Shown here: positions 25,768 to 27,709 of the stretch, piece after piece | Position numbering within the stretch: position 1 is the stretch's first letter | How the letters are laid out: every line of letters starts with the position of its first letter | Program-made: the position numbers and the translations under genes | The notes under the pieces: generated by a model | Seen by the model: only the letters and a program-made list of their open reading frames with translations | Databases searched by the model: none | Told to the model about the DNA's origin: nothing | From: Aphanocapsa sp. GSE-SYN-MK-11-07L | GTDB taxonomy: Bacteria > Cyanobacteriota > Cyanobacteriia > Thermosynechococcales > Thermosynechococcaceae | Length of the DNA stretch: 64,000 nucleotides | Assembly: GCA_019359715.1 (NCBI GenBank) | Contig: JAHHGS010000082.1 | Coordinates: 1 to 64,000, forward strand | Reading direction: 5' to 3'

Positions 25768-26091
25768 CTAGAGATATTTTTCCAGAGTCGTTGCCAGAGT
25801 CGTTTTAGGGACAGCTCCCACAACCATATCTACCCGTTGACCGCCCTTGAAAATCATCAAAGTTGGAATACTGCGAATCCCATACTGACTCGCAACACTC
25901 GGATTTTCGTCCGTGTTGACTTTGACAACTTTTATCTGTCCGACGTACTGCTCTGAAATTTCATCTACGACTGGAGCAACCATTCTGCAAGGCCCACACC
26001 AAGGGGCCCAAAAGTCCACCAGAACCGGAACCTCGCTGTCAAGAACTTCTTCCTTAAACGTAGTGTCTGTAACTTGCAGGGCTGATGACAT
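25768..26091 (-). CDS. trxA: Thioredoxin
   Basis: Small dithiol redox protein that reduces disulfides in Calvin-cycle and other target enzymes. The 107 residues hold the active site WCGPC at 31-35 in [14 protein letters not shown], the cis-Pro region SIPTLMIF and the C-terminal Gly ([11 protein letters not shown]). It is a classical soluble m-type-like protein. It follows guaB3 with the small RNA Yfr1 in between, an arrangement conserved in many cyanobacteria. Its promoter must lie in the 26092-26243 leader, or it is reached by partial read-through past Yfr1. Confidence 0.95.
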
Positions 26092-26243: not shown

Positions 26244-26313
26244 AAGAAACCGCCCGAACATAAGCCCAGGCGGAGTGTGGTGTGAGGAGTGAACGGAAAC
26301 TTGCGTCTCCGCT
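26244..26313 (-). ncRNA. yfr1: Yfr1 small RNA
   Basis: Abundant trans-acting cyanobacterial sRNA that pairs with mRNAs for outer-membrane proteins through an unpaired motif. On the minus strand the order is: a 5' hairpin (GGAGACGCAAGTTTCC region, 26294-26311), the ultraconserved single-stranded ACTCCTCACAC (26280-26290), and a 3' terminator hairpin (CCGCC...GGCGG, 26250-26273) ending in TTTCTT (26244-26249). A -10 box TACAAT lies at 26320-26325, which places the start near 26313. Size (about 65-70 nt), motif and location between guaB3 and trxA all match Yfr1. Exact ends are estimates. Confidence 0.93.
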
Positions 26314-26319
26314 AGCTCC

Positions 26320-26325
26320 ATTGTA
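26320..26325 (-). promoter_or_regulatory. -10 box of yfr1
   Basis: TACAAT on the minus strand, about 7 nt before the estimated 5' end of Yfr1. No canonical -35 box is visible at 17 bp. Confidence 0.6.
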
Positions 26326-26545
26326 TGAAAACAGTGTAAATTTGCCACTGCATCTGAAGCGAAACTTAGAATATTTAGCTAAACTTCAGCAGAATTCTAG
26401 TCCTTCCTGCTTGGACTAAAGATTATTTGTCTGATTAGTCTTGCTGCAAGCATAGAAAACTCTGAGGCCAGTTCAAAGACTGAGCAAGGATTTTAAGCTC
26501 AGATGATGACATGATAAACCTCTGTAATGACTTAACTTACTTGCC

Positions 26546-27709
26546 CTACTTGCCCATCCCCAACTTTTGGGCTTTTTGGTAAACTTTGCCTTCCGTCAGC
26601 AGCGAAGGGGCAATTACGACTTCGACTTGCTGCATTTCTCGAATATCTTTCGCACCTAAAGTCCCCATACTGGTTTGGAGCGCCCCTAGAAAGTTGTGGG
26701 TGCCGTCATCCAGTTGAGCTGGCCCGCGCAAAATTTGCTCTAGCGTACCCGTTGTGCCAACCCGAATTCGAGTCCCCCGGGGCAGGACGGGGCTAGGTGT
26801 TGCCATCCCCCAATGATAGCCGCGTCCAGGCGCTTCGGCAGCTCTGGCAAAGGGTGAACCCATCATCACTGCATCAGCCCCGCAGGCAATGCACTTACAA
26901 ACATCTCCACCGGTAATTAAGCCGCCATCGGCAATAATCGGCACGTATTGGCCGGTTTCCAGCAGGTACTGATCACGGGCGGCGGCACAATCAGCGATCG
27001 CGGTTGCCTGCGGCACACCCACTCCCAAAACTCCCCTTGACGTACAGGCGGCACCAGGGCCAATGCCAACCAAAACGGCGGCGGCCCCAGCCTTCATTAA
27101 GCTGAGGGTGACTTCATAGGTGACACAATTACCCAAAATTACCGGCATCGGCATTTCGCGGCAAAACTGAGCCAGGTCGAGCGGAGTAACCGCATCAGGA
27201 GACAGGTGGGCAGTCGAAACCACCGTTGCTTGAATAAACAATAGGTCTGCTCCAGCTTCGGCAACCGCATGGCCACAGCGGCTAGCGGCAGCGGGCGTTG
27301 CGCTGACAGCAGCAATTCCGCCGGCTGCCTTAATTTCTTGAATTCGCTGCCGGATTAGCTCTGGTTTAACGGGTTCAGCGTAGATGGATTGCATTAAAGG
27401 CACAAACCCTTGGACATCGACAGCAGCAATCTGATCCAACACGGGTTCAGGATCGGCATAGCGCGTCTGCACACCCTCTAGATTTAGGACGCCAAGCGCT
27501 CCTAACTGCGACAGCCGGGCCGCGACTTTAACATCAACAACACCATCCATTGCGCTGGCGATAATTGGGATTTCCCGCTCAATATTGCCAATTTGCCAGC
27601 CTGTGTTAGCTAATTGCGGATCAAGCGTGCGGCGGCCGGGAACCAGAGCAATTTCGTCAATGCCGTAAGCCCGGCGAGCTGTCTTGTTACGACCAATTTG
27701 AATATCCAC
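26546..27709 (-). CDS. guaB3: GuaB3-family IMP dehydrogenase-like protein
   Basis: TIM-barrel enzyme of the IMPDH/GMPR superfamily; cyanobacterial GuaB3 has been shown to be an IMP dehydrogenase lacking the CBS module. The 387 residues start with [20 protein letters not shown], typical of GuaB3. The loop [15 protein letters not shown] holds the presumed catalytic Cys. [20 protein letters not shown] binds phosphate, and [20 protein letters not shown] lies near the C-terminus. No CBS pair is present, so it is not classical GuaB. It is upstream of yfr1 and trxA on the same strand. Confidence 0.93.

What the first reader, a model, noticed from the sequence alone, without database searches (positions are those of the whole stretch)
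26244..26325. Yfr1 small RNA between guaB3 and trxA
The ultraconserved ACTCCTCACAC motif, two hairpins, a TACAAT box and the known synteny together identify Yfr1, which is easily missed by ORF-based annotation.
Basis: partly seen in the sequence, partly recalled or inferred. Interest (0 to 1): 0.55.

Follow-up and report, generated by a model that had tools for sequence, protein, structure and literature searches.

The report
Yfr1 small RNA in a cyanobacterium
This is the gene for Yfr1, a small regulatory RNA known from nearly all cyanobacteria; in this genome its exposed loop matches the ribosome-binding sites of most outer-membrane receptor and porin genes and of a cell-wall enzyme gene, which suggests what it switches down.

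Summary
Window 26248-26312 (-) matches Rfam RF01116 (Yfr1) end to end: 59.4 bits, cut-off 38, E 3.2e-9. It is the only Yfr1 in the genome. It has two stable hairpins (z -4.67), pair-preserving changes across relatives, a family-conserved promoter and the guaB3-yfr1-trxA order. Yfr1 was found in 279 of 291 genomes drawn from the class. As an RNA gene it is an ordinary member of a known family.

What I add is a regulon prediction. In this genome 24 of 31 analysable TonB-receptor and OprB-porin genes carry at least 7 contiguous bases complementary to the Yfr1 loop near the start codon, against 9 of 128 other ORFs. Decoy loops that keep the anti-Shine-Dalgarno core never reach this score (0 of 1000). 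TonB-receptor genes on other cyanobacterial plasmids show such a match in 8 of 15 cases, against 1 of 12 in other bacteria. murI (glutamate racemase) carries one in 25 of 28 family genomes; no held paper names murI with Yfr1. Nothing here shows transcription or repression.

The parts
26248..26312 (-). yfr1 gene (RNA 5' end about 26312/26313 by its distance from the -10 box; T-rich tail to about 26240)
   Evidence: Rfam RF01116, 59.4 bits, E 3.2e-9, full model 1-59
26293..26312 (-). 5' hairpin, 8 bp with GCAA tetraloop
   Evidence: MFE and centroid agree; 3 of 8 pairs have changes on both sides in a 30-sequence alignment
26274..26292 (-). single-stranded region between the hairpins (19 nt), the presumed pairing region
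   Evidence: unpaired in MFE and centroid
26280..26290 (-). conserved undecamer ACUCCUCACAC
   Evidence: the DNA search; invariant in the 30 aligned sequences
26250..26273 (-). 3' hairpin, 10 bp, Rho-independent-terminator-like
   Evidence: terminator scan; fold; 2 of 10 pairs with changes on both sides
26320..26325 (-). -10 box TACAAT
   Evidence: promoter scan; TANAAT 5-9 nt before GCGGAGAC in 29 of 29 family genomes
26342..26347 (-). -35-region element TGGCAA (the scan reads it one base earlier, as GTGGCA)
   Evidence: TGGCAA-N16/17-TANAAT in 25 of 29 family genomes
25768..26091 (-). trxA, downstream gene
   Evidence: Pfam Thioredoxin E 6.9e-36
26546..27709 (-). guaB3-type IMP dehydrogenase gene, upstream
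   Evidence: Pfam IMPDH E 5e-48

Best explanation
This is yfr1, transcribed from its own promoter as an RNA of about 65-70 nt. Two hairpins hold the CUCCUCACACC region single-stranded. That region pairs with (U)GGUGUGAGGA(G)-like sequence at ribosome-binding sites and blocks translation. In this organism the main targets are predicted to be outer-membrane importers (TonB-dependent receptors, OprB porins), an FecCD iron-transport permease and cell-wall precursor enzymes (murI, perhaps glmM). One or two Yfr2-like RNAs (Cyano-1) are predicted to titrate it. Shown here: the gene, fold, promoter box, synteny, family spread, the enriched complementary sites and the Yfr2 complementarity. Inferred: transcription, repression, titration and the physiological role (setting the ceiling on envelope traffic and wall synthesis).
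For: Rfam, single copy and phylogeny. Fold and covariation: (99.2% of cells paired against 33.0-51.7% for slid versions; 5 of 18 pairs changed on both sides, 1.0 expected by shuffling). Conserved promoter. RBS sites: 24 of 31 TonB/OprB genes against 1 of 46 window ORFs and 8 of 82 further own-genome ORFs; pooled Fisher 3.6e-15, and 16 of 23 (2.1e-10) after collapsing genes with similar upstream DNA to their lowest-scoring member. Decoy loops keeping CTCCTC: 0 of 1000 reach the observed score. Cyanobacterial plasmid TonB receptors 8 of 15 against other bacteria 1 of 12, Mann-Whitney p 0.0005, decoys 0 of 1000. murI match in 25 of 28 genomes and 9 of 11 genera. Two Cyano-1 RNAs, 46.6 bits and 35.3 bits (the second below the 41-bit cut-off), pair with the loop at -20.8 and -17.8 kcal/mol, reached by 0 and 6 of 500 shuffles. 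Published precedent: Yfr1 lowers 10 of 11 tested Nostoc reporter fusions through this motif, most predicted sites being just upstream of the start codon (PMC6974561, section 6 and part 1 of section 10 read).
Against: No transcript or expression data. mraY, a validated Nostoc target, shows no site better than shuffles in the own genome (43 of 100 shuffles as good) and none below 10 of 100 in 25 of 28 loci; three loci had 5-8 of 100. Seven loci of one genus (g2) share a TTGAGGAGTAGGG about 60 nt before the upstream-most start, which I cannot rule in or out. The 11-mer antimotif with up to 1 mismatch is not more frequent genome-wide than its reversed control (36, one of them yfr1 itself, against 52). 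Of the 31 OM genes 7 fall short, and three of the 24 matches (L233, L246, L247) do not sit clearly at a ribosome-binding site. Of 16 cyanobacterial plasmid receptors looked at, 8 lack a match (15 scored, plus L280 read by eye), and one of the 8 matches (L273) lies inside the coding region. The second Yfr2-like duplex is not clearly better than shuffles. One of 1000 decoy loops matched the murI score, and 11 of the 28 murI genomes are one genus. One covariation measure, further pair types, is at chance (12 against 11.6).
Confidence: 0.82

Rival explanations
1. The RNA is Yfr1, but the GGUGUGAGGA-like boxes are only strong Shine-Dalgarno or translation signals, or inherited leader DNA of paralogous receptors, and do not report Yfr1 pairing.
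For: Many boxes contain AGGA or GAGG. Eight of the 465 possible upstream pairs among the 31 genes are similar at E<=1e-3.
Against: Decoys that keep the anti-SD core score lower (mean 5.83 against 7.77; 0 of 1000 reach it). Collapsing the similar leaders leaves 16 of 23. Of 12 non-cyanobacterial receptor genes only 1 has a match, inside its coding region. Unrelated genes (OprB, murI) share the box.
Confidence: 0.17
2. Yfr10 or another motif-sharing RNA rather than Yfr1.
For: Yfr10 shares the undecamer (PMC6778093, abstract and passages).
Against: Full-length Yfr1 model match, both hairpins and guaB3-trxA synteny. Yfr10 is described as lacking conserved synteny and structure.
Confidence: 0.01
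3. A cis-acting leader or attenuator of trxA rather than a trans-acting RNA.
For: Same strand, 156 nt upstream of the trxA start, and no sigma-70-like site found on the minus strand between it and trxA.
Against: Eleven of 29 family genomes keep Yfr1 without trxA or guaB3 within the fetched flanks of about 1.5 kb or less; PMC2190773 lists T. elongatus as such a case. Terminator-like 3' end.
Confidence: 0.02

Closest known systems
Yfr1 (Rfam RF01116), e.g. Nostoc sp. PCC 7120, Synechococcus PCC 7942, Prochlorococcus MED4
   Same: Size, two hairpins, undecamer, terminator, guaB-yfr1-trxA order (PMC2190773, parts 1-2 of 4 read)
   Different: Only base changes in stems and loops; predicted target emphasis here is TonB receptors, porins and murI, without a convincing mraY site
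Yfr10
   Same: Shares the undecamer (PMC6778093 passages)
   Different: Described as lacking Yfr1's conserved structure and synteny
Yfr2 / Cyano-1 (RF01701; that the two are one family is recalled)
   Same: Complementary partner, present here once above the cut-off and once below
   Different: Carries the opposite motif
Enterobacterial outer-membrane sRNAs (MicF, OmrA/B, RybB; recalled)
   Same: Would work alike: blocking RBSs of porins and TonB receptors
   Different: Other hosts; sequence relation and need for Hfq were not examined

Membership tests
Yfr1 (RF01116) | Covariance-model match above the gathering score | tested here: met
   59.4 vs 38 bits, model 1-59
Yfr1 (RF01116) | Exact ACUCCUCACAC in an unpaired region of 16-20 nt between two hairpins | tested here: met
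   (19 nt unpaired)
Yfr1 (RF01116) | 3' hairpin acting as Rho-independent terminator | tested here: inconclusive
   Hairpin and T-rich tail in silico only
Yfr1 (RF01116) | guaB-yfr1-trxA gene order (frequent, not universal) | tested here: met
   met in the window and in 18 of 29 family genomes
Yfr1 (RF01116) | Abundant transcript of 54-69 nt | not testable with these tools
   needs northern blot or RNA-seq
Yfr1 (RF01116) | Base-pairing repression of envelope mRNAs | tested here: inconclusive
   complementary RBS sites enriched; mraY not convincing; repression itself not testable

The most novel reading that the evidence does not exclude
In cyanobacteria Yfr1 is a broad brake on outer-membrane import: many TonB-receptor and OprB genes have acquired or kept a GGUGUGAGGA-type Yfr1 box at the ribosome-binding site, including plasmid-borne ones in other orders. 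The same RNA brakes MurI, the entry step of D-glutamate into peptidoglycan, and so ties siderophore and nutrient uptake and wall synthesis to one constitutive RNA that Yfr2 releases.
Probability: 0.5. Interest if true: 0.55.

Novelty: new member of a known kind. Interest (0 to 1): 0.32.

Why it matters
The gene itself only adds one more annotated Yfr1. The regulon prediction matters more. Why an abundant, nearly constitutive RNA has an invariant motif across cyanobacteria is still only partly explained. An RBS box shared by TonB receptors, porins and murI would give the motif a concrete selective reason and can be tested at once with reporter fusions.

Tried and rejected
mraY as a conserved target in this family: the best duplex in the tested stretch (250 nt before to 60 nt after the start of the profile match) was reached by more than 10 of 100 shuffles in 25 of 28 loci, own genome included (43 of 100). 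Three loci (L113, L114, L120) had 5-8. Seven loci of genus g2 share TTGAGGAGTAGGG about 60 nt before the upstream-most start. Not convincing, not excluded for g2. L123 and L124 had no start codon in the open frame; L125 and L126 (split gene) were not tested.

Counting the 11-mer antimotif genome-wide: no excess. Site-by-site reading of start-proximal hits (16 of 35 against 15 of 52 for the reversed pattern; both counts include in-frame starts deep inside ORFs) proved a poor control, because the reversed pattern TGAGGAGTGTG also pairs with UCACUCCUCA and found an OprB gene (L154/L259). I replaced it with the family-based test.

Dropped rows and mended counts: TonB fragment L258 (no start codon in the open frame). 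L280 was not scored because the record carries no gene annotation there; read by eye it has no box. In one search I aligned 30 of the 59 Yfr1 sequences. The control (8 of 84) held two ORFs that also lie in the window; removes them (8 of 82). That control comes from loci picked by the reversed pattern plus four others, was not screened for outer-membrane genes and draws on the own murI locus too; three of its 8 matches lie 3-30 nt before the start used. In one search the guaB3 control was recognised in only 10 and trxA in 18 of 29 loci by the protein motif used (2 of 10 and 0 of 18 with 7 or more bases).

Considered and set aside: Yfr10, and a trxA leader (see rivals).

Full report
OBSERVATION. 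The undecamer is at 26280-26290 (-), once in the window (0.02 expected by shuffling) and once in the 5.1 Mb assembly. cmscan gives one hit over threshold in the whole window: Yfr1, 26248-26312 (-), 59.4 bits against a cut-off of 38, E 3.2e-9, full model. The RNA folds into two hairpins joined by 19 unpaired nt, -28.6 kcal/mol, z -4.67, 0 of 200 shuffles as stable. The scan finds GTGGCA-17-TACAAT at 26348-26320 (-) and a terminator-like hairpin at 26273-26250 (-). The minus-strand flanks are a thioredoxin gene and an IMP dehydrogenase family gene.

FAMILY EVIDENCE. The genome holds one Yfr1. All 29 genomes of the family held have one over the cut-off. In a draw of 291 genomes of the class, 279 match at E<=0.001 and 273 exceed the cut-off; that search used stricter filters that can lose weak matches. 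Both flanking genes, in the same order and strand, were found in 18 of 29 family loci. The 11 without belong to one genus label (g2) and show neither gene within the fetched flanks of about 1.5 kb (one locus is cut short); PMC2190773 (parts 1-2 of 4 read) lists Thermosynechococcus elongatus as lacking both neighbours. Of five named genomes holding an exact 30-base match, all five have trxA and four have guaB3 in the fetched stretch. In an alignment of 30 of the 59 Yfr1 sequences at hand, 99.2% of cells form a standard pair and 5 of 18 pairs have changes on both sides (1.0 expected by shuffling; at most 3 of 18 in slid versions); the number of further pair types is at chance, 12 against 11.6. 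TGGCAA-N16/17-TANAAT precedes the gene in 25 of 29 family genomes, and a TANAAT box sits 5-9 nt before the RNA's first bases in 29 of 29.

PARTNER RNA. Two Cyano-1 RNAs (Yfr2 type, by recall) are in the genome, at 46.6 bits (over the cut-off of 41) and 35.3 bits (under it). Their GUGAGGAGUGA and GUGAGGAG segments pair with the Yfr1 loop at -20.8 and -17.8 kcal/mol; 0 and 6 of 500 shuffles do as well. Binding and titration of Yfr1 by Yfr2 are described in PMC6778093 (abstract and passages seen) and PMC6974561 (section 10 part 1).

TARGETS. The 11-mer antimotif with one mismatch is not in excess genome-wide (36 sites, one being yfr1 itself, against 52 for the reversed string). Among its sites at start codons, however, are three TonB receptors with AMIN and Plug domains, an OprB porin, an FecCD permease, a glutamate racemase (murI) and a phosphoglucomutase-family protein that I read as GlmM by recall. 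Others there are a beta-lactamase-superfamily-domain protein, a DRTGG/AAA protein, a DUF192 protein, four ORFs without a Pfam match, and two sites deep inside ORFs that I did not scan. I therefore tested whole families.

All 26 TonB-receptor (PF07715) and 6 OprB (PF04966) matches of the genome were fetched; one fragment (L258) had no start and was dropped. Within 60 nt either side of the upstream-most start, 24 of 31 have 7 or more contiguous bases complementary to the Yfr1 loop (19 of 25 TonB, 5 of 6 OprB), against 1 of 46 window ORFs and 8 of 82 further ORFs of the genome (which removes two duplicates). Pooled Fisher p is 3.6e-15. Five groups of genes with similar upstream DNA, each reduced to its lowest member, leave 16 of 23, p 2.1e-10. 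Median duplex energy is -17.8 (TonB), -18.2 (OprB) and -8.65 kcal/mol (window ORFs). Of 1000 decoy loops that keep CTCCTC and shuffle the rest, none reaches the observed mean (7.77; decoy mean 5.83, maximum 7.58). By my count, 21 of the 24 matches start 7-25 nt before an in-frame start codon in a plausible place; L233, L246 and L247 do not. So most pairings would cover the ribosome-binding site.

INDEPENDENT CHECK. A TonB receptor of this genome was used to search plasmids. Of the 60 records listed, 20 are cyanobacterial; I took 16 (leaving out H5, H9 and H12 as near-duplicates and H18 as a close relative) and 12 of the other 40. Of the 15 cyanobacterial genes with annotated starts, 8 have 7 or more bases. 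Five of these have 10-11 bases of UGGUGUGAGGA just before the start; two of the five (Nostoc edaphicum, Trichormus) have look-alike leaders. One of the 8 (L273) lies 47 nt inside the coding region. Of the non-cyanobacterial genes 1 of 12 has a match, 44 nt inside the coding region. Mann-Whitney p 0.0005; Fisher p 0.018; decoys 0 of 1000. The sixteenth (L280) has no annotation and no box by eye. So the box is common, not universal.

murI. In the 28 family genomes with a murI match (one of 29 had none), the 120 nt taken upstream of a conserved N-terminal motif hold 7 or more complementary bases in 25, mean 9.0, in 9 of 11 genera; 11 of the 28 are one genus. Decoys: mean 6.0, 1 of 1000 as high. 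trxA in the same family: 0 of 18; guaB3: 2 of 10. mraY, a verified target in Nostoc, shows no convincing site here, with the reservation for genus g2 given under Tried and rejected.

KNOWN OR NEW. Yfr1's spread, structure, synteny, motif-dependent repression, and its bias to outer-membrane and peptidoglycan genes including two predicted TonB transporters are published (PMC2190773, PMC6974561, PMC6778093, as far as read). In PMC6974561 and PMC6778093 'murI' and 'glutamate racemase' do not occur in the main text, and searches of the held library for Yfr1 with murI or with glutamate racemase found 0 papers. Yfr1 with TonB: 3 papers, of which I read only PMC6974561, in part. Supplementary target tables could not be read, so murI may be listed there. 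The RNA is a new member of a known kind; the receptor-wide and murI sites are a prediction that extends it.

VERDICT. As a gene it is ordinary; the regulon sites make it moderately interesting.

Noticed in passing
L131, L132, L141 (genomes G180, G100, G026, which gave no Yfr1 match): The undecamer can sit in the loop of a small GGACA...TGTCC hairpin (read by eye; not the MFE fold in each) followed by a G+C-rich hairpin and T-run, alike in all three; perhaps Yfr10 (name from PMC6778093), a possible stand-in where Yfr1 is lost.
   Followed up: partly
L012, L013 (genomes G285, G221): yfr1 is preceded by the reverse complement of its own motif, making a long palindrome; a longer transcript would fold the motif away (-54.3 kcal/mol for a 90-nt stretch of L012). 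One search reports two Yfr1 matches in these genomes and in G279 and G077.
   Followed up: partly
L136 (genome G289, 77% complete, no Yfr1 match): Undecamer downstream of a TACAAT box and upstream of a long hairpin with T-run, without a clear 5' hairpin: degenerate Yfr1 or Yfr10-like.
   Followed up: no
G265 (two contigs, 99% complete): No Yfr1 match although nearly complete; six exact undecamers in the genome, three of which were read and do not sit in a Yfr1-like fold. Possibly another secondary loss.
   Followed up: partly
Genome of the window, contigs C2, C111, C137: 26 TonB-receptor plug-domain matches, with five on C2, four on C111 and three on C137: by my judgement a large siderophore-uptake repertoire.
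   Followed up: no
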